Positions 30,444-44,479 of a stretch of 56,433 nt of DNA are shown here, in pieces. Each line of letters begins with the position of its first letter. Position 1 is the first letter of the stretch. The stretch lies in assembly GCA_016192435.1 (NCBI GenBank), contig JACPUD010000055.1, forward strand, positions 1 through 56,433, in the 5' to 3' direction. This DNA is from Rhodocyclales bacterium. Its GTDB lineage: Bacteria; Pseudomonadota; Gammaproteobacteria; Burkholderiales; Rhodocyclaceae. The position numbers were made by a program, and so were the translations under genes. Below the pieces are notes generated by a model. The model was given only the letters and a program-made list of their open reading frames with translations. It was not told the DNA's origin and ran no database searches.

Positions 30444-32570
30444 TCATTTCTTCAGCAGCGTCGAGGCATGTTCCCGGCCGGCCGCCGAGGCCGCCGCGTA
30501 GGCCGCCTCGATGGCCAGGTCGGCGGTGGCGAAGATGTTGTCGCGGCCGATGTACTCGAAAAGGTGCGTGGCGTGCATGACGTCGATCACCTGCTTCTTG
30601 AGGCCGGAGAACAGCACCGTGATGCCGCTGGCACGCAGGCGCTCGACCAGGTGGCGCACCACCTCCTCGCCCGAGGCGTCGAGTTCGTTGATGCCGTCGC
30701 CGACCACCAGCAGGTAGGCCACCTGCGGGTTGCTGGCGACGGCTTCGAGCAGGGCGTCCTCGAAGTAGGACACGTTGGCGAAGTAGAGGCGACCGTCGAA
30801 GCGCACCGCGACCACCACGCGCGATTCGGGCAACTGATTCACCTTCACGTCGCGCAGCGTGCCGTCGTAGTAACGGCCGAGGATGGCGACGCGCGGCGTC
30901 ATGGTCCGGTAGAGATAAAGCAGGATCGCCAGCCCGGCGCCGAGCATGATGCCCTTGTCAAGATGCGGGGCAAACGCCAGGGTGGCGACGAAGGTGACCA
31001 CCGCGGCGATGCCGTCGTGCCGATTGGCCTGCCAGGCGTGCTTGATGGCATCGAAGTTGATCAGGCCGATCACCGCCATGATGATCACGGCGGCAAGCAC
31101 CGCCTGCGGCAGGTGGTAGAGCAGCGGCGTCAGGAACAGCAGGGTCAGCAGCACGAAGACCCCGGTGATGACCGAGGACATGCCGGACTTGGCGCCGGCG
31201 TTGATATTCACCGCGGAGCGCGAAAAGGAACCCGAGACCGGGAAAGACTGGGTCAGGCTGCCGACGATATTGGCCAGGCCCTGGCCGATCAGTTCCTGGT
31301 TGGGGTCGATTTTCTGCCGGGTCTTGGCGGCGATGGCCTTGGCGATCGAGATCGCCTCCATGAAACCGACCAGCGAGATCACGATGGCCGCCGAAAGCAG
31401 GCTGACGAAGGCTTCCCAGGAAAATTTCGGCAGGCTGACGGAAGGCAGGCCCTCGGGAATCCGGCCGACCACCTGGCCGCCGCCGGTCAGCCGGATCTCG
31501 CCTGCGGCCCCATGCACCGTCCGCGTGATGCGCCAGCGGTGGCCCTCGGTCTGCAGCCCCGACGGCACCTTGCCCTGGGCGAAGTAGGTCGCCGGCTTGC
31601 CGTCGCCGGCGGGCACCTGCTCCAGCACGGTGGCGCGAATGGCGCGGCTGCGGCGGCGGTTTTCGTCCTCGCGATCCTTGAGCTGCAGCTTGAGCAGTTC
31701 GATCTCGTAGCGTAGGCGGGCCACATCGTGAGCCGTTTCGCTGCCGGCCTTCTGCAGTTTCTTGAGTTCGGCATTGGCGGCGGCAAGCTGGTCGTTGATC
31801 TCCCTGATGCGCGCCTCGGTGCGCACGAATTCGCCGAGCAGCGTCTGCGCCTCGGGTTCGGCGATCTGCTCGATGGTCGCGCTGGCGCTGCGCTCGAAGC
31901 CGATCTGCCACGAAACCACGGTGGTCAGGGCGACGGCGATCAGCACGCCGGGCAGCTTCGGCGCTTTTTTGCGGATAACCCACATGATGGCGATCGCCGC
32001 GGCGCCCATGGCCAGGGTCGGCAGATGCGTGTCGCCGACCAGTTGCACGACGCCCCAGATGTCGCTGATGAAGGACTCCGAGCGCCCCATCGGCACACCG
32101 ATCAGCTTGTTCACCTGGGACAGGCCGATGATGATCGCCGCCGCGTTGGTGAAGCCGACGATGACCGGGTGCGAAAGGAAATTCACCACCACGCCGAGCT
32201 TGAACACGCCCAGTGCAAGCTGGAAGATGCCGACCATCAGCGCCAGCATGATCGCCAGCGCGACGAAGGCTTCCGAGCCCGGCGCCGCCAGCGGCGCCAG
32301 CGAGGATGCGGTGAGCAAGGAGGCGACCGCCACCGGCCCGGTGCCGAGCTGGCGCGAAGAGCCCCACAGCGCCGCGACGATCACCGGCAGGAAGGCCGCA
32401 TAGAGTCCGTAATAGGGCGGCAGGCCGGCCAGTTGGGCGTAGGCCATCGACTGCGGCACCAGCACCAGCGCCACGGTGAGGCCGGCGATGAAGTCGGCGC
32501 GCAGCGTCGCCCCGGCATAGGGAAACCAGCTCAGGAAGGGCAGGAAGCGTTGCAGCAAGGGCGATCTCAT
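30444..32570 (-). CDS. SulP-family anion transporter with STAS domain and an inserted coiled coil
   Basis: The 708-residue product begins with the SulP core (DFIAGLTVALVLVPQSMAYAQLAGLPPYYGLYAAFLPVI, then SRQLGTGPVAVASLL) and ends with a STAS domain (about 575-700: VVVAVRFDGRLYFANVSYFEDALL, then NELDASGEE). SulP proteins move sulfate, bicarbonate or dicarboxylates. Between residues about 225 and 365, where the paralogue at 37159-38916 has only a short loop, there is an insertion with a predicted coiled coil (about 248-312, TEARIREINDQLAAANAELKKL). It should lie between two membrane segments. The gene is 64 bases upstream of hyfB. Upstream, at 32619-32651, lies an 11-bp direct-repeat promoter motif. 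The substrate is unknown. Confidence 0.85.
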   Translation of the reverse strand: MRSPLLQRFLPFLSWFPYAGATLRADFIAGLTVALVLVPQSMAYAQLAGLPPYYGLYAAFLPVIVAALWGSSRQLGTGPVAVASLLTASSLAPLAAPGSEAFVALAIMLALMVGIFQLALGVFKLGVVVNFLSHPVIVGFTNAAAIIIGLSQVNKLIGVPMGRSESFISDIWGVVQLVGDTHLPTLAMGAAAIAIMWVIRKKAPKLPGVLIAVALTTVVSWQIGFERSASATIEQIAEPEAQTLLGEFVRTEARIREINDQLAAANAELKKLQKAGSETAHDVARLRYEIELLKLQLKDREDENRRRSRAIRATVLEQVPAGDGKPATYFAQGKVPSGLQTEGHRWRITRTVHGAAGEIRLTGGGQVVGRIPEGLPSVSLPKFSWEAFVSLLSAAIVISLVGFMEAISIAKAIAAKTRQKIDPNQELIGQGLANIVGSLTQSFPVSGSFSRSAVNINAGAKSGMSSVITGVFVLLTLLFLTPLLYHLPQAVLAAVIIMAVIGLINFDAIKHAWQANRHDGIAAVVTFVATLAFAPHLDKGIMLGAGLAILLYLYRTMTPRVAILGRYYDGTLRDVKVNQLPESRVVVAVRFDGRLYFANVSYFEDALLEAVASNPQVAYLLVVGDGINELDASGEEVVRHLVERLRASGITVLFSGLKKQVIDVMHATHLFEYIGRDNIFATADLAIEAAYAAASAAGREHASTLLKK

Positions 32571-32618
32571 GTCCCGGAATACGTTCCATGCGTCCGGGAA
32601 TTTGGCCCAACCCCGTTC

Positions 32619-32651
32619 TTGACGCTGTCTTGACGAAGCGGCAAATATTAA
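32619..32651 (+). promoter_or_regulatory. Direct-repeat activator site plus -10, site A
   Basis: TTGACG (32619-32624), five bases, TTGACG (32630-32635), ten bases including GGCAAA, then TATTAA (32646-32651). Two other sites (34729 and 44388) have exactly the same spacing. This is the geometry of OmpR/PhoB-class boxes, an 11-bp period ending ten bases before the -10. Read in this direction it points away from the SulP gene, into a region with hairpins but no gene. Confidence 0.6.
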
Positions 32652-32729
32652 CAGTGCCTATTGCACTCAGGACAACAAGGTTTTTATTCCGCAATCAGGG
32701 AAGCGTATTCCGCCGTGCCGCCAACGCCA

Positions 32730-32770
32730 ACTTTGATGATGCGGGAAACATCACCCCGCATCATCAAAGT
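32730..32770. other. Perfect 16-bp inverted repeat
   Basis: ACTTTGATGATGCGGG (32730-32745), a nine-base loop, then the exact reverse complement (32755-32770). No run of T follows on either strand, so it is not a standard intrinsic terminator, though the stem is very stable. It lies about 70 bases downstream of the start predicted from site A and could end or shape a short transcript. Confidence 0.65.
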
Positions 32771-32786
32771 CGGCCCTTCTCAAAGG

Positions 32787-32841
32787 CCCGCCCCCCTTCG
32801 CCCCCCCTCTCGGGGGGTTCCTGGTTTGCTCGCTACGCTCG
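32787..32841. repeat. C-rich hairpin repeat, second copy
   Basis: The stem is CCCCCC-TCTC-GGGGGG (32802-32817) with flanks CCCGCCCCCCTTCG and TTCCTGGTTTGCTCGC. It is the reverse complement of the copy at 25139-25192 with few differences. The two copies bracket hyfF, hyfE, hyfC, hyfB and the SulP gene in inverted orientation. Confidence 0.65.
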
Positions 32842-32871
32842 ATGAAAGCAGCGATGCAATATGGGTGGCTT

Positions 32872-34590
32872 TCACGTTGCCTGGCTTTCGGCCACGGCCA
32901 GCGGAGCGATGGCGCCCAGTGCGGCGGCGAGCTCGGCGTCCTCCAGCACCCGGACCAGCAGCGCCGCGTCCTGCACCTCGAAGTTGCCGCGGTACGCGCG
33001 CAGGTAGGCTAGGCCGCTGGCGCGATCGACGAATTCCAGCGTCGCGATGCGCCGCACGCATTCCCTGAGGAAGGCGGCATTCGCGGCGACCGTCAGGTCG
33101 GACGCGGCCGGATACAGCTCGGCCGGCGCGCCGGCATGGATGTCGACCTTTTGGTAGCGCTCGATGTCGATGAAGGCGGCCGGGTCGTAAATCACCATGC
33201 GTTCGCGGTCGCCGCTGGCGATGGTCTTGGGAAAGTTGCCGCGCGCCACGCGGTTGTCGAGGAAGACGTAGCGGTACTCGGGGCGCGGGCTGGCCAGCCA
33301 CTTGAACAGGATCTTCGGCATGCCGCGATAGGCCTCCACGCCGTGCGCCAGGAAATCTTCCACGGCCTTGTAGCGGCCGCGCTCCAGCGCCCGCTGCCAG
33401 CCGCGCCGGACAGTCTCCTCGGGCGGCGTGACGATGAAGTACATATACATGGTGTGCACATAGCGCGCATAGGTGTCGTGCAGCACGCGCGCCACCTTCT
33501 CGGCGGTGAAGCTGTCGAAGCGGAAGCGGTCGACCAGCAAATGCGGAATGGCGTGTTCGCGATTGGCCTTGTCGCGGATGTAGCGATCGAGCTTGCCGTC
33601 GATCACCATCAGTTCGCGGCTGGTCAGGTGGCCGGCATATTTGCGCGCCGGCCCGAGCGATTCGTAGTCGAGCAACTGGCGCCGCCAGACATCCGGGCTG
33701 ATCGTGGCGTAGCCATCGGCGGCGATGCCCTGTTCGCGCAGGACCTGCTTCAGCATCGGCCGCAGCGAGCTCTTGCCGGCGGCGGAGGCGCCCTTGAGGC
33801 TGATCAGCACCGGCGCCGCTTGCGTGGCGACGCGCGCATAGCCTTCCGCGTCGATCGCCGCCGCGACGCAAGGCGCGATCAAAACCCCGATCGACTGGCT
33901 GCCCTGGTTGTTGCAGACGTGGCGCGTGACCAGCTTCGCCAGCAGCTCCCGGTCCGCGCCGAGGCGGCCGCGCTTGCCGGCGATCGCGCCGAGCACCCGG
34001 TAGAGGCTCTTGTACACCGCGCGCCGCAGCGGATCGGCGGCGCCCAGGCCCAGCGTCTTGTAGCCGGCGACGATGCGGTACTCGCGCTCGGCGGGCGACT
34101 CGGACGGCGCACTCGGGCGCTGCTCCCGGCGCCAGCGGCCAAACCAGCCGCGCGCGGGGGGCGGCGCCGGCGGCGGAAACAGCGTTTCGGCGAGGATCTG
34201 GCTTACCAGCGCCGCGGTACGCTGGCTCAGTTCGGCATAGGCAGCTTCGATTTCGGCCATGTGCGGAGCGACGTAGGCGTCGCGGATCCGGGTCGCGATG
34301 CGGCGGAAATTGCGCCCGAAGTCCTCTTCCTCCTCACCCTCGGCGACGGCGATGTCGGCCGTGACGCGGATGATGATTTCATGCAGCGCCAGCCTTTGCG
34401 GGCGGAATACCGTGAGCTCCTCGTGCGGCAGGCCGGTCAGCGCGACGAGTTCGTCGATCTCGGCGACGCCGGTGAAGGCGCACTCGGGCCGCAGGATGGT
34501 TTCGAGCGCACGGAAGGCCGCGGGTATGCCCGCGCCGACGCCCGGATTCCAGGCCGAGGCTTCGCCGGCGGAGGCGATCGCGCCGCCCAT
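32872..34590 (-). CDS. Zeta-toxin-like P-loop protein with a long N-terminal extension
   Basis: The 572-residue product has a GGGAGG ribosome site seven bases before the ATG. The Walker A is LKGASAAGKSSLRP at about 264-278. Downstream text (DGYATISPDVWRRQLLDYESLGPARKYAGHLTSRELMVIDGKLDRYI) resembles zeta toxin/chloramphenicol phosphotransferase-like kinases, where the Asp after a serine-rich strand is catalytic. A later stretch (YMYFIVTPPEETVRRGWQRALERGRYKAVEDFLAH) matches zeta-type lid helices. The N-terminal 250 residues are mostly helical with no recognised domain. It is far longer than typical zeta toxins (about 280 residues), and no epsilon-type antitoxin gene adjoins it. A housekeeping kinase role is as likely as a toxin role. 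Confidence 0.6.
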   Translation of the reverse strand: MGGAIASAGEASAWNPGVGAGIPAAFRALETILRPECAFTGVAEIDELVALTGLPHEELTVFRPQRLALHEIIIRVTADIAVAEGEEEEDFGRNFRRIATRIRDAYVAPHMAEIEAAYAELSQRTAALVSQILAETLFPPPAPPPARGWFGRWRREQRPSAPSESPAEREYRIVAGYKTLGLGAADPLRRAVYKSLYRVLGAIAGKRGRLGADRELLAKLVTRHVCNNQGSQSIGVLIAPCVAAAIDAEGYARVATQAAPVLISLKGASAAGKSSLRPMLKQVLREQGIAADGYATISPDVWRRQLLDYESLGPARKYAGHLTSRELMVIDGKLDRYIRDKANREHAIPHLLVDRFRFDSFTAEKVARVLHDTYARYVHTMYMYFIVTPPEETVRRGWQRALERGRYKAVEDFLAHGVEAYRGMPKILFKWLASPRPEYRYVFLDNRVARGNFPKTIASGDRERMVIYDPAAFIDIERYQKVDIHAGAPAELYPAASDLTVAANAAFLRECVRRIATLEFVDRASGLAYLRAYRGNFEVQDAALLVRVLEDAELAAALGAIAPLAVAESQAT

Positions 34591-34690
34591 CAGCGTCCTC
34601 CCGGCAAACAGCGGATCTTGCGTCTCATGTCCCGTCCTTGTGCAGCGCCCAGCATAGCCGATGGCGCAAGGGTCGCCGCCGGCTCCGGGA

Positions 34691-34711
34691 GTTGGCGCTG
34701 GCGATACGGCG
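34691..34711 (-). repeat. Dispersed 21-bp element, copy 4 (upstream of the zeta-like gene)
   Basis: On the minus strand it reads CGCCGTATCGCCAGCGCCAAC, identical to copy 3. It lies between the divergent zeta-like and TauE operons, about 20 bases from site B, and is oriented with the zeta-like gene. Confidence 0.6.
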
Positions 34712-34728
34712 CCGGCGCATCCCGCGTC

Positions 34729-34761
34729 TTGACGTTTTCTTCACGGAGCAAATGATATTAG
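34729..34761 (+). promoter_or_regulatory. Direct-repeat activator site plus -10, site B (TauE-USP operon)
   Basis: TTGACG (34729-34734), five bases, TTCACG (34740-34745), ten bases (GAGCAAATGA), then TATTAG (34756-34761). The predicted transcription start near 34768 leaves an 88-base leader before the ATG at 34857. The layout is identical to sites A and C, and the orientation fits the downstream operon. Confidence 0.7.
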
Positions 34762-34856
34762 CAATCCTTAATAGACCATAACCGCAGCAGGACTTTACCG
34801 AGTCCGCGGCTTATTCCACGGCGCAGGCGCGGCCGTTTGCCAAAGGGGAAGGATTC

Positions 34857-35201
34857 ATGGACCTGCACAAGGCGCATTGGGGCAAAACCATCTTCTGGGG
34901 CGTCGCCACGGCCGCGCTGTACACAGCGATGTTCTCCTGGTCCGACCTGGTCCTGCACCTGGCACACACCACGCCCGATGCCTGCATCGTCGACCAGGGC
35001 GGCACCACGCTCTACTATCACAAGGCCGACGCCGCCGCCTGCGCCGCCAAAGGCGGCCACTTCGAGTCCGGCGTCTGGTGGCATGTGCTGCTGCCGATCC
35101 TGCTCGCCTTCGCCATATCGATCGTCCATGGCGCCTTCACCGGCCTGTTCTGGGAGGCCATGGGCCTCAAGCCCGCCGCCCGCGACGAAGCCAAGGAATA
35201 G
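34857..35201 (+). CDS. Small two-helix membrane protein upstream of the TauE-USP gene
   Basis: The 114-residue product has a strong AAGGGGAAGGA ribosome site. One membrane helix lies at about 12-32 (FWGVATAALYTAMFSW) and a second at about 73-95 (WWHVLLPILLAFAISIVHGAFTGLFW). The loop between has two cysteines (ACIVDQGG and AAACAAKGG) that could form a periplasmic disulfide. The stop is eight bases before the TauE-USP start, so the two are almost surely co-transcribed, and this gene is the first behind promoter site B. I do not recognise a family; an accessory subunit of the permease is an inference from position only. Confidence 0.8.
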   Translation: MDLHKAHWGKTIFWGVATAALYTAMFSWSDLVLHLAHTTPDACIVDQGGTTLYYHKADAAACAAKGGHFESGVWWHVLLPILLAFAISIVHGAFTGLFWEAMGLKPAARDEAKE

Positions 35202-35208
35202 CCGGGCC

Positions 35209-37131
35209 ATGGAAGCCACCCAGTTCATCGAACTCAATGCCGCGACGGTATTCCTGCTGGTGCTGATCGGCTTCATCGGCGGCATGGTCTCGGGCTTCAT
35301 CGGCTCCGGCGGCGCCTTCGTGCTGACGCCGGCAATGATGGCGCTGGGCGCGCCGGCCATGGTGGCGGTGGCTTCGAACATCTGCCACAAGTTCCCCAAG
35401 GCGCTGGTGGGCGCCGCCAAGCGCCACAAGTACGGCCAGGTGGACGTCAAGCTCGGCCTGATCCTCGGCCTCTTCGCCGAAGCCGGCATGCTCGCCGGCA
35501 AGCACCTGATGGTCGGTATCAGCCAGGCCTTCGGCAAGGTCGGCACCGACCTCTACGTCTCGGCGATTTTCATCGTGGTGCTGGCAGCGGTCGGCGGCTT
35601 CGTCCTGCGCGACTACCGCAAGCTGCGCCACGCGCCCCCCGACGAGGAACACGTGGTGCCGCCGCTGGCGCTCTGGGTACGGTCCATCGTCATCCCCGGC
35701 ACCATGGTGCACTTCGCTGCCATCCAGGGTCGCGTCTCGCTGCTGTTCGTGATTCCGATCGGCTTCGCCACCGGCCTGCTGGCCTCGGCCATCGCCGTCG
35801 GCGGCTTCATCGGCGTGCCGGCCATGATCTACATCCTCGGCGTGCCGGCGCTGCTGGCCTCCGGCACCGAACTGGTGATCGCCTTCGTCATGGGCCTCGG
35901 CGGCACCTTCCTCTATGGCCTCGAAGGCGCGGTCGACGTGCGCCTGTCCATGCTGATCCTGCTCGGCTCGCTGTTCGGCATCCAGCTCGGCGCCATCGGC
36001 ACCACCTACGTCAAGGACTACCAGATCAAGCTGGTGATGGCGACGATCATGCTCACCGTGCTGTTCTCGCGGATGTTCTACATCCCCGGCTACCTGTCGC
36101 AACTGGGCATGATCGCGCCGCTCGACCACGGCAGCATCGCCACGCTGAAGACACTGGGCGACAGCGTGCTCGCGGTGGCGCTGATCCTCGGCGCGGTGAC
36201 GGTGCTGACCTCGCTCACCAAGGGCATCGCCGAACACCGCAAGGCCGACTTCGCGCGTCAGCTGGCGGCGGGCCTGGCCGCCTTCACGCCCGCCCAGGGC
36301 GGCCTCGAACGCGGCGGCCGCTGGCGCCGCATCCTGCTCGCCACCGACGGCTCCGACTACAGCGAGGGCGCGATCCGCGTCGCCGCGGCGCTGGCGCGGC
36401 GCAACGATGCCCGCCTGTTCATCGCCAGCATCGCCGTCTACAACCCCGAATACGCCAGCACCGTGCCGGGGCTGGAGCAGGCGGCGCTCGACCAGGCCGG
36501 GCGCAATGTCGCGGGCGCCGTGCAGGCCGCCGCCGGCATCGAGCACGACGTGGTGATCGCCGAGGCCGAAGATCCCTATCGCGGCATCGTGGACGCCGCC
36601 AGCGAGGATCGCGCCGATCTGATCGTCATGGGCCGGCGCGGCAAGCGCGGCCTGGCGCGGGCCATGGTCGGCGACGCCACGGCGCGCGTGATCGGCCATG
36701 CGCCCTGCAACGTGCTGGTCGCGCCGCGCGGCGCCGCGGACTGGCGCCAGGGCATCCTGGTCGCCACCGACGGCTCGCGCCACGGCGACGCCGCGGCGCA
36801 GCTCGCCGGACAGCTGGCACTGGCGTGGTCCTTGCCGCTGACGGTGGTCTCGGCGGTGCTGCCCAGCCACAACGAACAGCGCCGGCGCGAAGCCGTCAGC
36901 GCCATCGACCGCGTCAAGGCCGGCCTCGCGGCGCTGCCGGTGACGGTGACCGGCATCGTCGCCGAAGGCCGCCCGGAACAGGTGATCCTCGACCAGGCGG
37001 GCAAGGCCGGCGCCGACCTGATCGTCATCGGCACCCACGGCCGCACCGGCCTCGACCGCCTGCTGATGGGCAGCGTCGCCGAACGTGTGATCGGCTTCGC
37101 CGCCTGCCCGGTGCTGGCGGTGAAAATATGA
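35209..37131 (+). CDS. TauE/SafE-type permease fused to two universal-stress domains
   Basis: The product has 640 residues. The N-terminal 340 are a TauE/SafE-type permease with about eight helices (LIGFIGGMVSGFIGSGGAFVLTPAMMALG, the repeated half GFATGLLASAIAVGGFIGVPAMIYILG). These families export sulfite or sulfonates or move related anions. The C-terminal 300 residues hold two USP domains. The first is RRILLATDGSDYSEG to GRRGKRGLARAMVGDATARVIGHAPCNVLV; the second is QGILVATDGSRHGD to GTHGRTGLDRLLMGSVAERVIGFAACPVLAV. Both keep the G-x2-G-x9-G nucleotide-binding loop. An ATP/ADP-sensing cytoplasmic regulator on the permease is the natural reading. It follows the small membrane gene by seven bases and belongs to the site B operon. 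Confidence 0.88.
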   Translation: MEATQFIELNAATVFLLVLIGFIGGMVSGFIGSGGAFVLTPAMMALGAPAMVAVASNICHKFPKALVGAAKRHKYGQVDVKLGLILGLFAEAGMLAGKHLMVGISQAFGKVGTDLYVSAIFIVVLAAVGGFVLRDYRKLRHAPPDEEHVVPPLALWVRSIVIPGTMVHFAAIQGRVSLLFVIPIGFATGLLASAIAVGGFIGVPAMIYILGVPALLASGTELVIAFVMGLGGTFLYGLEGAVDVRLSMLILLGSLFGIQLGAIGTTYVKDYQIKLVMATIMLTVLFSRMFYIPGYLSQLGMIAPLDHGSIATLKTLGDSVLAVALILGAVTVLTSLTKGIAEHRKADFARQLAAGLAAFTPAQGGLERGGRWRRILLATDGSDYSEGAIRVAAALARRNDARLFIASIAVYNPEYASTVPGLEQAALDQAGRNVAGAVQAAAGIEHDVVIAEAEDPYRGIVDAASEDRADLIVMGRRGKRGLARAMVGDATARVIGHAPCNVLVAPRGAADWRQGILVATDGSRHGDAAAQLAGQLALAWSLPLTVVSAVLPSHNEQRRREAVSAIDRVKAGLAALPVTVTGIVAEGRPEQVILDQAGKAGADLIVIGTHGRTGLDRLLMGSVAERVIGFAACPVLAVKI

Positions 37132-37158
37132 CGGTCGTGCGCCGGCGCGGCGCCACCA

Positions 37159-38916
37159 TCATGCGGCATGCAGAATCGGGGGCGAAGTAGCCGGCTCCGA
37201 CGACGATCGCGGCAGGGACTGCCACAGCTTTTCGAGCGCGTCCCGGTCGGTCGGGAAGATGTTTTCGGCACCGATCGCGTCCGTCAGGCCGGTACGATCC
37301 ATGACGTCGGCCACCTGCTGCTTAATGCCGCTGAAGACCAAGGTAACGCCGCTGGACTTGAAACGGGCGACCAGGTTGAGCAGCATTTCCACGCCCGAGG
37401 CGTCGATGTCGTTGATGCCGCTGGCCTTGACCAGGATGCAGGTCATTTCCGGATTCTCCCGCTCCAGTCGCAGCAGCGCGTCCTCGAGGTAGGCAACGTT
37501 GACGAAGCGCAGCGCGCCATCGAAGCGCAGGGCTCCGAGACTTGAATGCAGCGGCGGTAGTTGGTGCCTTTCGCTGTCGCGCAGGGTTGCGTCGCTATGC
37601 ATGCCGAGCAGGGCGATACGCGGCCGCATCATGCGATAAAGCAGCAGCGACAGTGACAGGATGATGCCGGTCAGGATTCCGTTCTGGATGTTGGGTGCAA
37701 ATGCCAATGTCGTGACAAAGGTCACCGCCGCCGCGATACCGTCGTCGCGCTTGGCGCGCCAGGCATTGGCGAGGGCGCGAAGATTGATCAGGCCGAATAC
37801 CGCCATCATGATGATTGCGGCCAGAACCGGCTTGGGCAAATGATAGAGCAAGGGTGTCAGGAACAGCAGCGTCAGCAGCACGAACAGTGCGGAAATTATG
37901 GACGACAGCCCGGTTCGGGCATCAGCGGCAAGATTCAAAGCCGAGCGCGAAAAAGAGCCGCTGACCGGCATGGACTGGCTGAAGGCCGCCGCCACCTTGG
38001 CCAGCCCCTGGCCGATCAGTTCCTTGTTCTGGTCCCAGGGCTGACGCGTTTTGATGGCGATCACCTTGGCGCTGGACATGGCTTCCATGAAGCTGATCAG
38101 GGCTATGACGAAGCCGGCGGGCAGCATGTCCATGGTGGCCTTCCAGCCAACCGGCGGCACGCTGAATTCAGGAAGGCCGCGCGGTATCTCGCCGATGACC
38201 CTGCCGCCAAGCTCGGCGTAGTTTACGAGGTAGCTGGCGCCCGTCAGCAATGCCACGGTTATCAGCACTCCCGGGAGTTTCGGCGCCAGCCGTTTGAACC
38301 CGGCCAGCATGACAATCGCCGCGGCGCCGAAGCCGAGTGACAACTCGTGCAGGGTGTCGATATGGGAAATCACATGCCATATGTCGGCCAGGAAATGCTC
38401 GGAATTGTGCATCGAGATGCCCAGCAGCGCGGGCAATTGCGAGAGGCCGATGATCAGCGCGGCGGCGTTGATGAAGCCCATCAGCACTGGATGCGAGAGG
38501 AAATTGAGCAGCACGCCGATACGCAGCACGCCGAAGGCAATCTGGAACAGCCCAGAAATCAGGGCCAGCAGGATCACGTAGGAGTAGAAGGCATCGCTGC
38601 CGTGGGCCGCCAGTGGCGCGATGCTGGCGGCGGTCAACAGGGAGGTCATCGCGACCGGTCCGGTGGACAACTGCGAAGAGGAACCGAACAGCGCACCGAT
38701 GATCGTCGGCAGCAGTGCCGCATAGAGGCCGTAATAGGCCGGTACGCCGGCCAATTGCGCGTAAGCCAGCGACTGCGGAATGGCCACCAGCGACACGGTG
38801 ATCCCGGCGAGCAGATCGCGCCGCAGAGTATCCCCGTTGCGCAGCACGCGCAGCGAATCAGACAGCGAACGCAAGTATTGGGCGGCCGATAACGGCAGGG
38901 ACACGCCAACGCCCAT
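37159..38916 (-). CDS. SulP-family anion transporter with STAS domain
   Basis: The 585-residue product contains DLLAGITVSLVAIPQSLAYAQLAGVPAYYGLYAALLPTI, SSQLSTGPVAMTSLL, FLSHPVLMGFINAAALIIGLSQL and SFSRSALNLAADARTGLSSI, all typical SulP core text. A C-terminal STAS domain (about 460-570) has NDIDASGVEML, with the Asp-x-Ser loop. It is about 60% similar by eye to the transporter at 30444-32570 but lacks the coiled-coil insertion. I chose the ATG at 38916 because it overlaps the stop of the small upstream gene as TGATG; an ATG at 38922 is the alternative. It is convergent with the TauE-USP gene. No direct-repeat box of the A/B/C type was found upstream. Confidence 0.87.
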   Translation of the reverse strand: MGVGVSLPLSAAQYLRSLSDSLRVLRNGDTLRRDLLAGITVSLVAIPQSLAYAQLAGVPAYYGLYAALLPTIIGALFGSSSQLSTGPVAMTSLLTAASIAPLAAHGSDAFYSYVILLALISGLFQIAFGVLRIGVLLNFLSHPVLMGFINAAALIIGLSQLPALLGISMHNSEHFLADIWHVISHIDTLHELSLGFGAAAIVMLAGFKRLAPKLPGVLITVALLTGASYLVNYAELGGRVIGEIPRGLPEFSVPPVGWKATMDMLPAGFVIALISFMEAMSSAKVIAIKTRQPWDQNKELIGQGLAKVAAAFSQSMPVSGSFSRSALNLAADARTGLSSIISALFVLLTLLFLTPLLYHLPKPVLAAIIMMAVFGLINLRALANAWRAKRDDGIAAAVTFVTTLAFAPNIQNGILTGIILSLSLLLYRMMRPRIALLGMHSDATLRDSERHQLPPLHSSLGALRFDGALRFVNVAYLEDALLRLERENPEMTCILVKASGINDIDASGVEMLLNLVARFKSSGVTLVFSGIKQQVADVMDRTGLTDAIGAENIFPTDRDALEKLWQSLPRSSSEPATSPPILHAA

Positions 38917-39206
38917 CACCATGATTCTTCCATGCTGCAGTTTTGCGGCACCAGGCAGCCGGCCACCCGGATCTTGCCGCGCCGACAATGGCGACTTAAC
39001 GCCGGTTCGGTGGCCGCTGGATGAAACTGGCGGGGGCGCTGCATGAGCTTCCGTGCCCGACTCTGCGCCCCCTGAAACCAGCGTTGTTCGACTTCGACAA
39101 GATGACGCTCCGCCATCAGATGCAGTGCTTCTCCAAGATTACCGGCATTGGCAAACTCGGTCATGCGTGAAAGTCGATCGATAAAATCCCGAACAAATGC
39201 GTGCAT
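38916..39206 (-). CDS. Small protein upstream of and coupled to the SulP gene
   Basis: The 96-residue product has a GGAAGG ribosome site five bases before its ATG at 39206, and its stop overlaps the SulP start as TGATG, both signs of a real coupled gene. The N-terminal half (MHAFVRDFIDRLSRMTEFANAGNLGEALHLM) is probably helical. The C-terminal half is basic and contains three cysteines. No membrane helix or known domain is visible. It may be a regulator or a leader frame for the transporter. The second half could simply be low-constraint sequence, so confidence is moderate. Confidence 0.5.
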   Translation of the reverse strand: MHAFVRDFIDRLSRMTEFANAGNLGEALHLMAERHLVEVEQRWFQGAQSRARKLMQRPRQFHPAATEPALSRHCRRGKIRVAGCLVPQNCSMEESW

Positions 39207-39312
39207 GTGACCTTCCGTGATTGAACGACAAGAAAGGGAGCCCTATGCAGCGACCGTGCCCATCGGGCAAGCACTTGTTCCATAGGTATTTTGATTGCCC
39301 CACCCATCCTGT

Positions 39313-39331
39313 GCAGCGTTTTCAACGCTGC
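39313..39331. other. Short palindrome in the divergent region between the SulP unit and the kinase gene
   Basis: GCAGCGT-TTTCA-ACGCTGC, a seven-bp perfect stem with a five-base loop. No T run follows. It lies in the 260-base divergent region (39207-39467) and could be an operator or a weak hairpin. I found no correctly spaced sigma-54 or sigma-70 pair in this region. Confidence 0.35.
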
Positions 39332-39467
39332 GATATGCAACACACGAGCGCCCATCGGGAGCCGGATAATCTTTGCAAACCCTTGCAGCAAGCTTATCTA
39401 TAGTAATCGCCACACTCGTTCGATCGTATGTTGCATAATGCGACACACTTGCAAACGCCCTGATCCG

Positions 39468-40961
39468 ATGAAGCTTTTTGGCTTGCACCCTTCGTTGCGC
39501 GGAAAAATTGCCTTCGCCTACGCGGCTATCGCGTCACTGACGCTGGCGATTTCCCTGTTCGCCTACGAGGAATTGCGTTTGCTGGAGGACAAGATCCTGC
39601 TCGGCGAGCGAGTTTCGGAACTGTTCGATACCGCCCTCGAAATTCGTCGCTTCGAGCGCAATTTCTTTCTCTACAGGCAGGACGCCGACTATCGGGAAAA
39701 TGTCGACTACAGCAACAAGATGCTCAGGTTGCTCGACAGCAATGCCAAGGATTTCATCACGCTCCGCGCGGGGCAAAGTCTGGCTGAACTGCGCGGCGAA
39801 CTGACCCGCTACCGGCAGGCGATCGATGCCTGCTTCGTCGCCAACCGCGAGCAGCCCGGCCGCCTGCGGCAATTGGAGCCGCAGGTACGGGGCGCCGGGC
39901 AAAACATCGTCGCCGCCAGCGAAGCGGTGGTGACAGCCGAGCGCCAACTGGTCAAGTCCTCGCTGTCGTCGTTCAGGATGATCCTGTTCTTTTCAGTAGC
40001 CGGCGTCGCGTTACTGACGATTGCGGTCGGCCAGGCGCTGTCGCGCCGCGTGGTGCAACCGCTGAAGCAGATCGAGGACAACCTCAATGCCGTGGCCCGT
40101 GGCAAACGGGGAGCATTGGCCATGCCCGGCGAAGACCGGGAAATCGTTTCGATCGTCACCGCCTTCAACCAGATGCTGAAGGAACGGGAGGAGCGCCAGA
40201 GGCATTTGCTGCGCTCTGAAAAGCTCGCCGCGATGGGCACCATGGTGGCCGGTGTGGCGCACGAATTGAACAATCCGCTGTCGAACATATGGTCTTCCTG
40301 CCAGATCCTGCTGGAAGACCGGGCGCCGATCATCGGCAGTCCGCAACGCGACATGCTGCGGCAGATCGACGAACAAAGCGTGCGCGCCCGCAACATCGTG
40401 CGCTCGCTGCTCGATTTCACCGCCGAGCGCCCGTTTCGCGCGGAGATGCTGCCGCTGGAGGCTCTCGTGCGCCAGACCCTGCGTTTCATCAAGGACGATA
40501 TTCCGCACGGGCTGGAGATTACGCTGGATATCCCGGCCAATTTCGTCGTCCAGGCCGATCCGCAAAGGCTGCAACAGGCGTTGCTTAACCTCACAAGGAA
40601 CGCCATGCAAGCTGCCGGCGAAAACGGCCGCGTGATGATCGCTGCCAGCCGGCATGCCGTCGGCGCCACCGCACCCGCGGACCCGGGCCTTGCGCCCTGC
40701 CGTGAGACGGCCGCGGTCGACATCCGCGTCAGCGACGACGGCCCGGGAATTCCCCCACAGATCCTGCCGCGCATCTTCGATCCGTTCTTCACCACCAAGG
40801 AGGTTGGCAAAGGCATGGGGCTCGGCCTGTTCATCGTCTACCAGATTGTCGAAGAGCACGGCGGCTGCATCTCGGCAGCCAACGAAAATGGTCGCGGCGC
40901 CACCTTTGTCATGCGCCTGCCGCAAGGCGGTGAAAGTACATATGCACATGAAAAAACCTGA
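39468..40961 (+). CDS. Membrane sensor histidine kinase (NtrB-like, HAMP)
   Basis: The product has 497 residues. TM1 lies at about 12-32. A periplasmic helical domain of about 140 residues (ELFDTALEIRRFERNFFLYRQDADYREN) looks like a four-helix-bundle sensor. TM2 is at about 172-190, followed by HAMP (LSRRVVQPLKQIEDNLNAVARG), then the H-box with His at about 265 (MVAGVAHELNNPLSNIW) and an ATPase domain (LLNLTRNAMQAAG, VSDDGPGIP, FFTTKEVGKGMGLGL). The HELNNPL form is typical of kinases paired with NtrC-type regulators, and such a gene overlaps it by 20 bases. The start has no visible ribosome site. The stimulus is unknown. Confidence 0.87.
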   Translation: MKLFGLHPSLRGKIAFAYAAIASLTLAISLFAYEELRLLEDKILLGERVSELFDTALEIRRFERNFFLYRQDADYRENVDYSNKMLRLLDSNAKDFITLRAGQSLAELRGELTRYRQAIDACFVANREQPGRLRQLEPQVRGAGQNIVAASEAVVTAERQLVKSSLSSFRMILFFSVAGVALLTIAVGQALSRRVVQPLKQIEDNLNAVARGKRGALAMPGEDREIVSIVTAFNQMLKEREERQRHLLRSEKLAAMGTMVAGVAHELNNPLSNIWSSCQILLEDRAPIIGSPQRDMLRQIDEQSVRARNIVRSLLDFTAERPFRAEMLPLEALVRQTLRFIKDDIPHGLEITLDIPANFVVQADPQRLQQALLNLTRNAMQAAGENGRVMIAASRHAVGATAPADPGLAPCRETAAVDIRVSDDGPGIPPQILPRIFDPFFTTKEVGKGMGLGLFIVYQIVEEHGGCISAANENGRGATFVMRLPQGGESTYAHEKT

Positions 40962-42321
40962 CCGAATCCTGATTGTCGACGACGAGGAAATCGCCGTGCG
41001 CAACTTGAGCCACGTCATGATGGCGGAGGGCTACGAGGTCACCACGGCGCATAGCGGCAGCGAAGCACTGGCGTTGCTCGAAAGCCGGCAGTTCGACCTG
41101 CTGCTGACCGACCTGCGCATGGAGAGGATCGACGGCATGGTTCTGCTCAAGGCCTGCAAGGAACTCCACCCGGACAGCGAAGTTATCGTCATCACCGGTT
41201 ATGCCACTACGGAAACCGCGGTACACGCGATGAAACTCGGCGCCTTCCATTACATCGCCAAGCCCTTCCATTTCGACGAAGTCAGGAAAGTCGTCGCCGA
41301 AGCGCTGGAAAAATTGCGGCTGCGTCGTGAAAACCAGCGGCTGCGAGCCGAGATCGCCAGCTACCGCGGCAAGGCAAAATTCATCACTCAGGATGCGGCC
41401 ACCCTGCGCATGCTCGACCTGGCGCGACAGATCGCCCCCACCGACTGCAACGTCCTCGTTACCGGCGACAGCGGCACCGGCAAGGAACTGCTGGTGCAGT
41501 TCCTCCATCGCCACAGCGGCCGCCACAGCGGCCCCCTGGTCGCGGTCAATTGCGGCGCCTTCAACAAGGAATTGTTCGCCAACGAGCTTTTTGGTCACGA
41601 GCGCGAGGCCTTCACCGGCGCCGCAAGCGCGCGCAAGGGCCTGATCGAAGCTGCGTCGGGAGGCACGCTGTTTCTCGACGAAATCACCGAGATGCCGCCG
41701 GAGATGCAGGTCAAGCTGTTGCGCGTCATCCAGGAGAGGGAGGTGCTGCGTCTGGGCGCCACCGTACCGATCAAGGTTGACCTCCGCGTCGTCGCTGCCA
41801 CCAATCGCGATATCGCGCAGGCTGTCGCGGACCAAGTTCTTCGCCCGGACCTGTACTTCCGCCTCAATGTGGTCACTCTGCACATTACCCCGCTGGCGCA
41901 GCGGCCTGACGACATCCCGTTGCTGGCGCAGCATCTTCTGCACAAATTCTCGCTGCAGATGGATAAGCCAGTCTTGGCGATCACGCCCGATGCACTCGAA
42001 CGCCTGCAGGCCTATGCCTTCCCCGGCAACGTGCGCGAACTGGAAAATATCATCGAGCGCGGGGTGGCAATTTCCGTCGGCGACACCCTCGGGCTGGAGC
42101 AGTTGCCACCTCATCTGCGATCCGGCGAGCTCGCCGTTTTCCGCAAGAAGAATGGCCGCATACCGACCCTGGACGAGCAGGAGCACGATTACATCCGCTG
42201 GGTGCTCGACGCAGTCGGTGGCAACCAGACTCTCGCCGCACAGGCGTTGGGCATCAACCGCAGCTCGCTCTGGCGCAAGCTCAAAACCAGGAGCGCCGAT
42301 GACCATCCCACACCCCAATGA
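40942..42321 (+). CDS. NtrC-family sigma-54-dependent response regulator
   Basis: The product has 459 residues. The receiver has DDE at 13-15 and phospho-Asp at about 57 (LLTDLRM). The AAA+ domain has Walker A GDSGTGKELL, Walker B GGTLFLDEITEM and the arginine-finger region LRPDLYFRLNVV. The C-terminal Fis-type helix-turn-helix reads GGNQTLAAQALGINRSSLWRKLK. The sigma-54 contact loop reads EAFTGA instead of the usual GAFTGA; substitution at the first Gly is known in natural family members and may be tolerated. It overlaps the upstream kinase by 20 bases. Its targets should have -24/-12 promoters, but I found none by eye in the intergenic regions here. Confidence 0.9.
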   Translation: MHMKKPDRILIVDDEEIAVRNLSHVMMAEGYEVTTAHSGSEALALLESRQFDLLLTDLRMERIDGMVLLKACKELHPDSEVIVITGYATTETAVHAMKLGAFHYIAKPFHFDEVRKVVAEALEKLRLRRENQRLRAEIASYRGKAKFITQDAATLRMLDLARQIAPTDCNVLVTGDSGTGKELLVQFLHRHSGRHSGPLVAVNCGAFNKELFANELFGHEREAFTGAASARKGLIEAASGGTLFLDEITEMPPEMQVKLLRVIQEREVLRLGATVPIKVDLRVVAATNRDIAQAVADQVLRPDLYFRLNVVTLHITPLAQRPDDIPLLAQHLLHKFSLQMDKPVLAITPDALERLQAYAFPGNVRELENIIERGVAISVGDTLGLEQLPPHLRSGELAVFRKKNGRIPTLDEQEHDYIRWVLDAVGGNQTLAAQALGINRSSLWRKLKTRSADDHPTPQ

Positions 42322-42327
42322 CGCCGC

Positions 42328-42348
42328 CGCCGTATCGCCAGCGCCAAC
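42328..42348 (+). repeat. Dispersed 21-bp element, copy 3 (after the ntrC-type gene)
   Basis: CGCCGTATCGCCAGCGCCAAC, a perfect consensus copy, starting seven bases after the stop of the NtrC-type gene and 27 bases before the OmpR-type regulator start. Confidence 0.6.
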
Positions 42349-42374
42349 TCTCACCACTGCAAAATAGTCCGGCC

Positions 42375-43133
42375 ATGCCCACAGCAGCATCCCTCAACCA
42401 TTCGCCGCAGAAAACCGCGCCCCTGAAAATCCTGGTGGTCGAGGACAACCCGGATCTGGCCGCCAACCTGGTCGATTACCTGGAAGCACGCGGCCATCTG
42501 GTGGATGCGGCCGGCGACGGCCTGAGCGGACTGCATCTGGCCAGCAGCCAGAGTTTCGACGTGATCCTGCTCGACCTGATCCTGCCCGGCATGGACGGCA
42601 TCGCGCTGTGCCGTCGTCTGCGTGAGGAAGTCGGCAAGGCGACGCCGATCCTGATGCTGACCGCGCGCGACACCCTCGACGACAAGATCGCCGGCCTCGA
42701 AGCCGGCGCCGACGATTACCTGGTCAAGCCCTTCGCCCTGCGCGAGGTGGCCGCGCGCATCCTGGCGCTGGCAAGACGCGCCCAGGCCAGCGTGGCGCAG
42801 GGTGAGTTGCGCGTGGCCGACCTGTGCTTCGACACCGCGACCTTGCGCGTCACGCGCGGCGGCCGTGACATCGCCCTGCCGCCGATCCCGCTGCGCATGC
42901 TCGAAACTCTGCTGCGCGCCTCGCCGCGCGTGCTCGGCCGCGAGGAAATGGAGCGCGCCATCTGGCACGACGCGCCGCCGGATTCCGACGCCCTGCGCAG
43001 CCACCTGCACCTGCTGCGCGCCGCGATCGACAAGCCTTTCCGCCAACCCTTGCTGCACACCCTGCGCGGGCTCGGCTGGCAGATCGCCGCACCCGAACCG
43101 GCCGACCCCGCCGACGATGGCACGCCGCCGTAG
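42375..43133 (+). CDS. OmpR/PhoB-family response regulator
   Basis: The 252-residue product has a receiver domain (KILVVEDNPDLAANLVDYL) with phospho-Asp at about 67 (VILLDLILPGMDG), Thr in LMLTARD and Lys in YLVKPFALREV. The C-terminal winged helix (about 155-235) includes FDTATLRVTRGGRDIALPPIPLRMLETLLRASPRVLGREEMERAIW and ends DKPFRQPLLHTLRGLGWQI. This class binds direct repeats with an 11-bp period and often contacts the polymerase next to the -10. The three TTGACG-N5-TTSACG boxes in the window fit that class, and one lies immediately upstream of the neighbouring SulP-USP gene, so this regulator is the best local candidate to bind them. It overlaps its kinase by 17 bases. Confidence 0.9.
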   Translation: MPTAASLNHSPQKTAPLKILVVEDNPDLAANLVDYLEARGHLVDAAGDGLSGLHLASSQSFDVILLDLILPGMDGIALCRRLREEVGKATPILMLTARDTLDDKIAGLEAGADDYLVKPFALREVAARILALARRAQASVAQGELRVADLCFDTATLRVTRGGRDIALPPIPLRMLETLLRASPRVLGREEMERAIWHDAPPDSDALRSHLHLLRAAIDKPFRQPLLHTLRGLGWQIAAPEPADPADDGTPP

Positions 43134-44391
43134 TCTTCGTCTGCGCGTCGCCATGGCCTTCGCCGGCCTGGGCGCCGCGCTGAGCCTGCTGCTTAGCCTC
43201 GGCATCTGGTTCGCCACCCTCGACGTGTCGCAGCGACTGATGGATCAGACGCTGAAGGCCGAGCTGGAGGACTACATGGCGCGCCGCGCGCGCAATCCGA
43301 ACTCGCTGCCGCCGGCCGCCGCCAGCCTGCGCGGCTATTCCATGGCCTCCGGCTCCTCGGGCGCCGACCTGCCGCCGTCCCTGCGCGCCCTGCCTGCGGG
43401 CCAGCACGAAATCGAACTCGACGGCATCCCGTATCGCGCGGCGGTCGCCGAACAGGACGGCAGCCGCTATGTGATCCTGTTCGACGAGGTGCGGCAGAAG
43501 CGCCGCCAGCAGCGCTTCCTCGGCTACCTGGTGGCCGGCGCGGTAATGATGACCCTGCTCGCCGCGGTGGGCGGCCTGTGGCTGGCCGGGCGCGTGATCG
43601 CACCGGTCACCGAACTGGCGCGGGCGGTGACCGAGGCCGACCCGGAAAGTCCGCCGCGCCTGCCGGCCATCGCGGCCGCCGCCGCCCCGGGCGACGAGAT
43701 CGACGAACTGGCGCATGCCTTCGAGCGCTACCTGGCGCGTCTGGCCGCCTTCGTCGAGCGCGAACGCAGCTTCGCCGCCGATGCCAGCCACGAACTGCGC
43801 ACGCCGCTGGCGGTGATCCGCGGCGCCGCCGAGGTGCTCGCCGAAGACCCGGGGCTGGACTCAGCGCAGCGCGAACGCGTGGCGCGCATCGAACGCGCGG
43901 CCGAGGAAATGGCGCAACTGATCGCCGCGCTGCTGCTGCTGGCGCGCGAGGACTACGCACCGCTCGACGAAACCTGCGATGCGACGCGCCTTGCCGCTGC
44001 CTGCATCGAGCGCTATCGCACGCTGGCGGCGTCGCGCGGCACGACGCTGAAACTCGACGCACCGGCGACGGTGGAACTCAAGGTGCCGCCGGCGCTGTTT
44101 GCCATCGTCATCGCCAACCTGGTGCACAACGCGGTGGCCCATACGCGCGATGGCGTCATCGCGGTCGCGCTCGACCCCGCGTCGCTGACGGTGGAGGACA
44201 GCGGCAGCGGCATCGGCGACGAGGCGCTGGCCCGCGTCTTCGAGCGCCACTACCGCGGACCCGAGAGTGCCGGCACCGGCATCGGCCTGTTTCTCGTCAA
44301 ACGCGTCTGCGACCGCCTCGGCTGGCAGGTCGCGCTGCGCAGCGATCTCGAGAAAGGCACTACGGTCACCCTGGGCTTCACGACTTCTTGA
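43117..44391 (+). CDS. Sensor histidine kinase (HisKA, OmpR partner)
   Basis: The 424-residue product has TM1 at about 12-33, a short periplasmic domain of about 100 residues (DVSQRLMDQTLKAELEDYM) and TM2 at about 136-158. HAMP-like text follows (GRVIAPVTELARAVTEADPE), then the H-box with His at about 225 (FAADASHELRTPLAVIRG) and an ATPase domain (NLVHNAVAHT, VEDSGSGIGD, TGIGLFLVKRV). Unusually, the G2 region HYRGPESAGTGIG and the short N-box leave a compact ATPase domain. It overlaps the regulator by 17 bases in another frame. Its stop codon is inside the first TTGACG of promoter site C, which belongs to the next gene. Confidence 0.88.
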   Translation: MARRRSLRLRVAMAFAGLGAALSLLLSLGIWFATLDVSQRLMDQTLKAELEDYMARRARNPNSLPPAAASLRGYSMASGSSGADLPPSLRALPAGQHEIELDGIPYRAAVAEQDGSRYVILFDEVRQKRRQQRFLGYLVAGAVMMTLLAAVGGLWLAGRVIAPVTELARAVTEADPESPPRLPAIAAAAAPGDEIDELAHAFERYLARLAAFVERERSFAADASHELRTPLAVIRGAAEVLAEDPGLDSAQRERVARIERAAEEMAQLIAALLLLAREDYAPLDETCDATRLAAACIERYRTLAASRGTTLKLDAPATVELKVPPALFAIVIANLVHNAVAHTRDGVIAVALDPASLTVEDSGSGIGDEALARVFERHYRGPESAGTGIGLFLVKRVCDRLGWQVALRSDLEKGTTVTLGFTTS

Positions 44392-44420
44392 CGCTACCTT
44401 CACGCGGCAACGCCTAGCAT
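44388..44420 (+). promoter_or_regulatory. Direct-repeat activator site plus -10, site C (SulP-USP gene)
   Basis: TTGACG (44388-44393, overlapping the kinase stop), five bases, TTCACG (44399-44404), ten bases (CGGCAACGCC), then TAGCAT (44415-44420). The spacing is identical to sites A and B. The predicted start is near 44427, about 50 bases before the ATG chosen for the SulP-USP gene. Confidence 0.65.
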
Positions 44421-44479
44421 GACCGTTTGCTCCCGGCATCCTGCCGGCTTTGAGTCAACATTACGATCTGCTAATATTC

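What the first reader, a model, noticed from the sequence alone, without database searches (positions are those of the whole stretch)
32619..44420. One OmpR/PhoB-type promoter layout shared by three anion-transporter loci
Three intergenic sites have the same architecture with no deviation in spacing: TTGACG-N5-TTSACG-N10-TANNAN (32619-32651, 34729-34761, 44388-44420). The direct repeat has an 11-bp period and ends ten bases before the -10, which is how PhoB/OmpR-class activators are placed. A conserved GCAA follows the second repeat in all three. Two sites head the TauE-USP operon and the SulP-USP gene; the third lies between the SulP and zeta-like genes. An OmpR-type regulator and kinase lie directly upstream of site C. 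I infer a regulon in which this pair controls USP-fused SulP/TauE permeases. The motif is seen; the link to this regulator is inference.
Basis: partly seen in the sequence, partly recalled or inferred. Interest (0 to 1): 0.8.

Follow-up and report, generated by a model that had tools for sequence, protein, structure and literature searches.

The report
Local ColR-like regulon of anion transporters
Three matching DNA docking sites beside anion-transporter genes are real and very probably belong to the neighbouring sensor-regulator pair: the pattern occurs nowhere else in this genome, follows that regulator through related bacteria, and is mostly missing or decayed where the regulator has been lost.

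Summary
In detail: the motif occurs three times in the window and nowhere else in the 3.52-Mb assembly. Site C has a third unit inside the kinase gene; the 'conserved GCAA' is not supported. In the genus all 9 motif-bearing genomes are among the 12 with the regulator's orthologue; none of the 19 others has the motif. In 13 chosen regulator-bearing genomes, 19 of 19 hits lie in the cluster. The transporter SulP-A also occurs in 17 genus genomes without the regulator: 1 of 17 keeps the box, and two show decayed boxes beside intact neighbouring elements. The box has the 11-bp TTNAC geometry published for ColR, but the kinase lacks the ColS metal motif and the regulator's tie to ColS-type pairs is unresolved in a tree. 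Best reading: an autoregulated, cluster-confined regulon of a ColR-like pair that activates TauE-USP and SulP-USP. Site A points away from SulP-A and overlaps a reverse -10, so SulP-A may be lowered. Binding, transcript starts, signal and substrates are untested.

The parts
32618..32651 (+). Site A: CTTGACG-N4-CTTGACG (32618-32635), N10, -10-like TATTAA (32646-32651)
   Evidence: same place next to SulP-A in 9 of 9 genus genomes where SulP-A sits in the regulator cluster
32645..32653 (-). Reverse extended -10 (TGTTAATAT) for SulP-A, overlapping the + strand -10 of site A
   Evidence: sequence; CTG(C/T)TAATAT kept upstream of SulP-A in several relatives, lost in others such as G008 and G011
32674..32710 (.). 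Conserved block AACAAGGTTTTTATTCCGCAATCAGG-N3-GCGTATTC of unknown role, at a fixed distance from site A
34728..34761 (+). Site B: CTTGACG-N4-CTTCACG (34728-34745), N10, -10-like TATTAG (34756-34761); heads small membrane gene and TauE-USP
   Evidence: also in L030 and L032
44376..44420 (+). Site C: three CTTNACG units (44376, 44387, 44398), N10, -10-like TAGCAT (44415-44420); heads SulP-USP; first unit inside the kinase gene
   Evidence: a near-site after the kinase in 22 of 32 chosen clusters
44468..44479 (+). CTGCTAATATTC, extended -10-like element before SulP-USP, present also in genomes without the regulator
   Evidence: once in own assembly; relatives
42375..43133 (+). OmpR-family response regulator, ColR-like box geometry; proposed binder of sites A, B and C
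   Evidence: Response_reg plus Trans_reg_C; phyletic link
43117..44391 (+). Sensor histidine kinase; QKRRQ where ColS has FExRE
   Evidence: HisKA and HATPase_c, HAMP below its cut-off
30444..32570 (-). SulP-A: SulP permease with STAS domain, next to site A
34857..35201 (+). Small membrane-type protein (114 aa), first gene after site B; no Pfam or NCBIfam match
   Evidence: membrane character by eye
35209..37131 (+). TauE permease fused to two USP domains
44480..47101 (+). SulP permease with STAS and two USP domains; start may be 44531
   Evidence: start by comparison
32872..34590 (-). Zeta-like gene between sites A and B; 5' end faces site B
   Evidence: weak Zeta_toxin match at the Pfam cut-off (22.7 against 22.3 bits)

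Best explanation
The three sites are operator-promoters of the ColR-like regulator encoded at 42375-43133. The phosphorylated regulator binds two to four head-to-tail CTTNACG units spaced 11 bp apart. The last unit ends 10 bp before a -10 hexamer, so bound regulator sits where a -35 would be and recruits RNA polymerase. This raises the small-membrane-gene/TauE-USP transcript (site B) and SulP-USP (site C). In relatives the same kind of site heads the regulator-kinase genes, directly or through TauE-USP, so the system is autoregulatory there; in the window SulP-B and an NtrC-type pair lie in between. Site A adjoins SulP-A; its -10 overlaps a reverse extended -10 for SulP-A, so activation in the + direction would compete with, and probably lower, SulP-A transcription. 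Shown by sequence: motif, spacing, confinement to the cluster, phyletic link to the regulator, decayed boxes in two genomes without it. Inferred: binding, phosphorylation dependence, activation at B and C, autoregulation, the effect on SulP-A. Unknown: signal and transported anions.
For: Exact motif 3 times, all here, control 0; generalised box: 19 hits in 11 of 13 chosen regulator-bearing genomes, all in the cluster, control 0. Genus: motif in 9 of 12 with the orthologue and 0 of 19 without (p 1.1e-5). Family sample: 5 of 16 with a regulator of at least 66% identity and 2 of 281 others (p 4.6e-6). 32 chosen clusters: 40 near-sites in 26.7 kb of expected intervals, 3 in 585 kb elsewhere. SulP-A with box: 9 of 11 genomes with the regulator, 1 of 17 without (p 7e-5). 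Decayed boxes beside kept neighbouring elements in G010 and G028. Arrays of up to four units still ending 10 bp before TA (by eye). ColR consensus with the same half-sites and 11-bp period (PMC2689224, passages).
Against: No binding or transcription data. The sites and the regulator lie in one cluster, so joint inheritance explains part of the association; relatives are not independent and the Fisher tests ignore that. 10 of 32 chosen clusters have no near-site after the kinase by the scan, and L068, L069, L070, L113 and L128 have none in any interval (arrays are visible by eye in L068 and L070). G048 and G039 carry the regulator but give no strict hit. G003 keeps a box without an intact regulator. 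In the family search the reversed control hit once in each of three genomes, against 12 true hits in seven. P. putida ColR was reported not to regulate its own gene (PMC2689224, passages). At site A the + direction has no gene to serve in the window. In the window the regulator genes are not directly behind a site.
Confidence: 0.75

Rival explanations
1. The boxes belong to another OmpR-family regulator of the genome, and the local pair is only a neighbour.
For: Other OmpR-family regulators exist, one of 40% identity in the own genome. Many OmpR-family boxes share an 11-bp period, for example the PmrA box (PMC3973317, passages).
Against: No motif in the 19 genus genomes lacking the orthologue, though several of them carry 40-50% relatives. 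SulP-A survives without the regulator but the box mostly does not. Boxes are confined to the regulator cluster.
Confidence: 0.1
2. The local regulator binds the sites, but mainly as a repressor, at least at site A: it blocks SulP-A, and the + strand -10-like hexamers are only relics.
For: At A the box lies downstream of the reverse SulP-A -10 and the + direction leads only into the antisense of the zeta-like gene in the window, L029, L030 and L032. CTGCTAATATTC is a separate promoter-like element before SulP-USP.
Against: The 10-bp spacing and TA of the + strand -10 are kept at B and C too, at 1.5 bits per base against about 0.3 in flanks (partly by construction). In compact relatives the + direction leads to the regulator operon.
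Confidence: 0.12
3. The three sites are copies of one promoter by recent duplication, alike by descent and without shared control.
For: Sites A and B share similarity beyond the box (by eye), so B may be a copy of A.
Against: Site C shares only repeats, spacing and TA. Across relatives the flanks carry 0.25-0.33 bit against 1.7 in the repeats (partly by construction). Boxes are decayed in two genomes without the regulator while neighbouring elements are not.
Confidence: 0.03

Closest known systems
ColRS of Pseudomonas putida (ColR box, PMC2689224; ColS metal sensing, PMC4074579; passages of both read)
   Same: Two TTNAC half-sites at an 11-bp period; the window sites differ from the ColR core by 1 (B), 2 (A) and 3 (C) letters, all in the T-track (counted by eye). 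OmpR-type regulator plus two-pass kinase. One relative with a 54% regulator has the exact motif before a sulfatase-like gene (G223; gene name by eye), which would suit an envelope role.
   Different: Targets are anion permeases with USP domains; the kinase lacks FExRE; the layout suggests autoregulation, which was not seen for P. putida ColR; no real ColR sequence was compared.
PmrA and QseB-type regulators (PmrA box, PMC3973317, passages)
   Same: Head-to-tail half-sites with an 11-bp period; some relatives here have CTTAACG units (L108-L110).
   Different: Half-site sequence differs; model scores far below cut-off: PmrA 149.8 of 330, QseB 140.2 of 345 bits.
PhoB
   Same: Same fold family and direct-repeat activation logic (recalled).
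   Different: TIGR02154 scores 158.1 of 296.2 bits.
Bidirectional promoters of E. coli (PMC12825309, abstract and passages)
   Same: At site A the + (TATTAA) and - (TAATAT) hexamers overlap; predicted starts lie about 20 bp apart, near the reported commonest 18 bp.
   Different: No transcription measured here; the paper studied E. coli promoters, none with an OmpR-family regulator in the passages seen.

Membership tests
ColRS two-component system | OmpR-family regulator (receiver plus winged helix) with a two-pass histidine kinase | tested here: met
   Pfam; two membrane spans judged by eye from the sequence
ColRS two-component system | ColR box: two TTNAC half-sites at 11-bp period around a T-track | tested here: inconclusive
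   Half-sites and period met; T-track has 1 to 3 mismatches (by eye)
ColRS two-component system | FExRE (ExxE) metal motif at the end of the ColS periplasmic loop | tested here: not met
   Window QKRRQ; 0 of 27 SulP/TauE-linked kinases read match [FIM]ExRE
ColRS two-component system | Common descent with ColR | tested here: inconclusive
   No named ColR in the set. Careful tree of 83 of 91 regulators: SulP/TauE-linked rows in a 35-row group (92/83, which also holds two ExxE rows and others), 22-row group with most FExRE kinases apart (99/95); deep forks unresolved (quick tree of 91)
ColRS two-component system | Envelope or lipid A genes as targets | tested here: not met
   Window sites head or adjoin permeases; envelope-type neighbours only in a few relatives (by eye)
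PmrA / QseB / PhoB / CopR equivalogs | NCBIfam curated cut-off | tested here: not met
   149.8 of 330, 140.2 of 345, 158.1 of 296.2 and 173 of 279.2 bits
Bidirectional promoter (site A) | Overlapping symmetrical -10 hexamers | tested here: met
   Sequence of 32645-32653; the reverse hexamer is lost in some relatives, for example G008 and G011
Bidirectional promoter (site A) | Measured divergent transcript starts about 18 bp apart | not testable with these tools
   Only predicted: about 32658 (+) and 32638 (-)

The most novel reading that the evidence does not exclude
Promoter capture: in several relatives without the regulator between them, SulP-A and SulP-USP stand back to back, each with its own CTGCTAATAT-type -10. 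A ColR-like regulator-kinase cassette entered between them, and its operon took the reverse complement of the SulP-A -10 as its own -10, with a new ColR-type box in front. This made a bidirectional switch in which the signal raises TauE-USP, regulator, kinase and SulP-USP and lowers SulP-A, exchanging one anion permease for USP-fused ones. The direction of change (insertion rather than loss) is not shown.
Probability: 0.3. Interest if true: 0.62.

Novelty: new variant of a known kind. Interest (0 to 1): 0.47.

Why it matters
It gives an uncharacterised regulator-kinase pair a defined operator, a short closed target list and natural comparisons with genomes that lack the regulator, so binding and promoter logic can be tested directly. 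It ties a ColR-like system whose kinase lacks the known metal motif to USP-fused anion permeases whose substrates and control are unknown here, and site A is a test case for regulation at a bidirectional promoter.

Tried and rejected
Conserved GCAA after the second repeat: rejected (register differs at A; not generally kept in relatives).

Generic PhoB, PmrA, QseB or CopR assignment: model cut-offs not met.

Site A as promoter of a separate + strand gene or small RNA: not supported. In L029, L030 and L032 the antisense zeta-like gene ends about 80-100 bp after the site. An inverted repeat near 32735-32775 in the window was seen by eye only and not folded.

CTGCTAATATTC as part of the regulator box: rejected, because it is present in genomes without the regulator and its distance to site C varies.

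Placing the regulator as sister of ColS-type pairs: a quick tree and a careful one without eight long or doubtful rows leave the deep forks unresolved.

Named relatives by a scan of genome contigs (80 loci kept, close kin may be left out): all 80 loci scanned. L147 has a SulP gene beside a 60% regulator and no near-site; L177 has SulP-like pieces near a 43% regulator and no near-site; L162, L188 and L197 have a site with one mismatch not beside SulP (in L188 behind the kinase, in L197 before the regulator). Plasmid records gave 4 records, all under 60% identity.

Literature: searches listed nothing on a two-component system controlling SulP-USP or TauE-USP genes; only listings were looked at there, and most subscription journals are not in that library. 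Structure prediction and fold search were not used.

Limits: several relatives are incomplete assemblies, so absence of the regulator can be an assembly gap; in G010 and G028 the gene next to the SulP-A promoter was read and is not the regulator. G029's SulP-A lacks its 5' part, so its promoter was not really read although it is counted among the 17. The 32 clusters and the 13 genomes were chosen by me among those fetched or listed.
Full report
What is in the sequence. The three sites are exact and evenly built, and the exact motif occurs nowhere else in the assembly. Two mismatches add nothing in the window and three places elsewhere in the assembly, fewer than the four of the reversed control. 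With the C that precedes each unit, CTTNACG-N4-CTTNACG is found four times in 3.52 Mb, all here. The fourth shows that site C is a triple array whose first unit lies in the kinase gene; the kinase stop codon lies in the second unit.

Genes. SulP-A (30444-32570, -), zeta-like gene (32872-34590, -), small membrane-type protein (34857-35201), TauE-USP (35209-37131), SulP-B (37159-38988, -), an NtrC-type kinase and regulator (39468-42321), the OmpR-type regulator (42375-43133), its kinase (43117-44391), and SulP-USP (44480 or 44531 to 47101).

Relatives. In clusters of the same genus and of other genera the layout is compact: SulP-A, a site, then either regulator-kinase directly or small membrane gene, TauE-USP, regulator and kinase, then in most a site, then SulP-USP (for example L026, L027, L028, L031, L033, L037, L108, L109, L118). 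The window differs by the zeta-like gene between sites A and B, shared with L029, L030 and L032, and by SulP-B plus the NtrC-type pair between TauE-USP and the regulator. Several relatives have three or four tandem units, the last still about 10 bp before TA by eye (L112, L115, L116, L119, L137, L068, L070). Scanning 32 chosen clusters with one mismatch allowed gives 40 sites in 26.7 kb of expected intervals and 3 in 585 kb elsewhere; two of those three, L107 and L114, lie before SulP-USP behind a broken kinase gene. 22 of 32 clusters have a near-site after the kinase; the misses are L068, L069, L070, L107, L113, L114, L120, L125, L128 and L129. Across aligned sites the repeats carry about 1.7 bit per base and the -10 about 1.5, against 0.25-0.33 in flanks (17 rows for A, 22 for C). 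This is partly by construction, since the sites were chosen by the consensus; L032 was dropped as a near copy of L030, and L068 and L070 were dropped from set C.

Link to the regulator. In the genus, 9 of 31 genomes have the exact motif, reversed control 0, and 12 of 31 have a regulator orthologue of at least 68% identity; all 9 are among the 12 (p 1.1e-5). In the family sample 7 of 297 genomes have the motif (12 hits; the reversed control hits once in each of three other genomes). Of the 7, 5 are among the 16 with a regulator of at least 66% identity (p 4.6e-6). The two others are G176, where the contig ends near the site (one search list loci, L034), and G223, where a 54% regulator starts about 105 bp away and the site heads a sulfatase-like gene (gene name by eye). 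In 13 chosen regulator-bearing genomes the generalised box gave 19 hits in 11 genomes, all in the cluster, none with the reversed pattern; G048 and G039 gave none. The tests treat genomes as independent, which they are not.

Separating regulator from transporter. SulP-A orthologues occur in 28 of 31 genus genomes. A two-unit box without mismatch lies within 400 bp upstream in 9 of 9 genomes where SulP-A sits in the regulator cluster, in 0 of 2 where the regulator lies elsewhere (G017, G023), and in 1 of 17 without the regulator (G003) (9 of 11 against 1 of 17, p 7e-5). G003 shows only a broken regulator and kinase copy (L271), its SulP-A is broken too, and its site A has an altered -10. In G010 the cassette is absent, SulP-A and SulP-USP stand back to back, and the second unit reads TTGTGG; in G028 the units read TTGAGG and TTTGCG. 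In both, the AACAG after the -10 and the conserved block remain, and in G010 CTGCTAATATTC remains too. In G017, G018 and G002 SulP-A and SulP-USP are divergent with no regulator between them. CTGCTAATATTC heads SulP-USP in all three, and a matching element heads SulP-A in two of three, with a variant in G018. So CTGCTAATATTC looks like a promoter element independent of the regulator.

What the regulator is. NCBIfam models of PhoB, PmrA, QseB and CopR score well below their cut-offs. The published ColR consensus (PMC2689224, passages) has the same half-sites and period; the T-track has one mismatch in B, two in A and three in C (by eye). In a quick tree of 91 regulators all 28 SulP/TauE-linked ones fall in one group of 33 (SH-aLRT 92). 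In a careful tree of 83 they fall in a 35-row group (92/83) that also holds two rows with an ExxE kinase. A separate group of 22, in which 15 kinases read [FIM]ExRE, the ColS metal motif (PMC4074579, passages), is well supported (99/95), but the forks between the groups are unresolved. The window kinase reads QKRRQ at that place, near relatives mostly QKRRE-like. The pair is therefore ColR-like in its box, does not meet the ColS sensing feature, and its descent is open.

Mechanism. The 10-bp gap from last unit to -10 suggests activation from the -35 position at B and C (inference from known OmpR-family promoters, recalled). At A the + hexamer TATTAA overlaps the reverse hexamer TAATAT with its TG; predicted starts are about 20 bp apart. 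Work on E. coli bidirectional promoters finds that strongly activating one direction can lower the other (PMC12825309, abstract and passages). Hence the suggestion that the regulator raises its own operon (in relatives) and the USP-fused permeases and lowers SulP-A. None of this has been measured.

What stays open: signal, substrates (SulP-A and SulP-USP match solved SLC26/SulP structures of varied substrate), the role of the conserved block, and whether the zeta-like gene is transcribed from the reverse side of site B.

Noticed in passing
44468-44531: CTGCTAATATTC ends at the annotated ATG of SulP-USP (44480), and several relatives have no ATG there, so the real start is probably 44531.
   Followed up: partly
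32674-32710: A conserved block (AACAAGGTTTTTATTCCGCAATCAGG..GCGTATTC) lies at a fixed distance from site A; related sequences stand upstream of SulP-A even in genomes without regulator or box. Role unknown.
   Followed up: partly
L119 and L137, after the kinase gene: Four-unit arrays stand before OmpA-like lipoprotein genes (names by eye) instead of SulP, so the regulator group may also serve envelope genes.
   Followed up: partly
39468-42321; L116 482-3252; L267 5440-7167: An NtrC-type kinase-regulator pair recurs near these permease clusters in two relatives, broken in L267; its targets were not sought.
   Followed up: no
32735-32775: A long inverted repeat in the gap between site A and the zeta-like gene, seen by eye.
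   Followed up: no
L110 7733-9688: In G101 another multi-span permease gene (SLC13-like, by eye) lies between SulP-A and the site, on the SulP-A strand.
   Followed up: no
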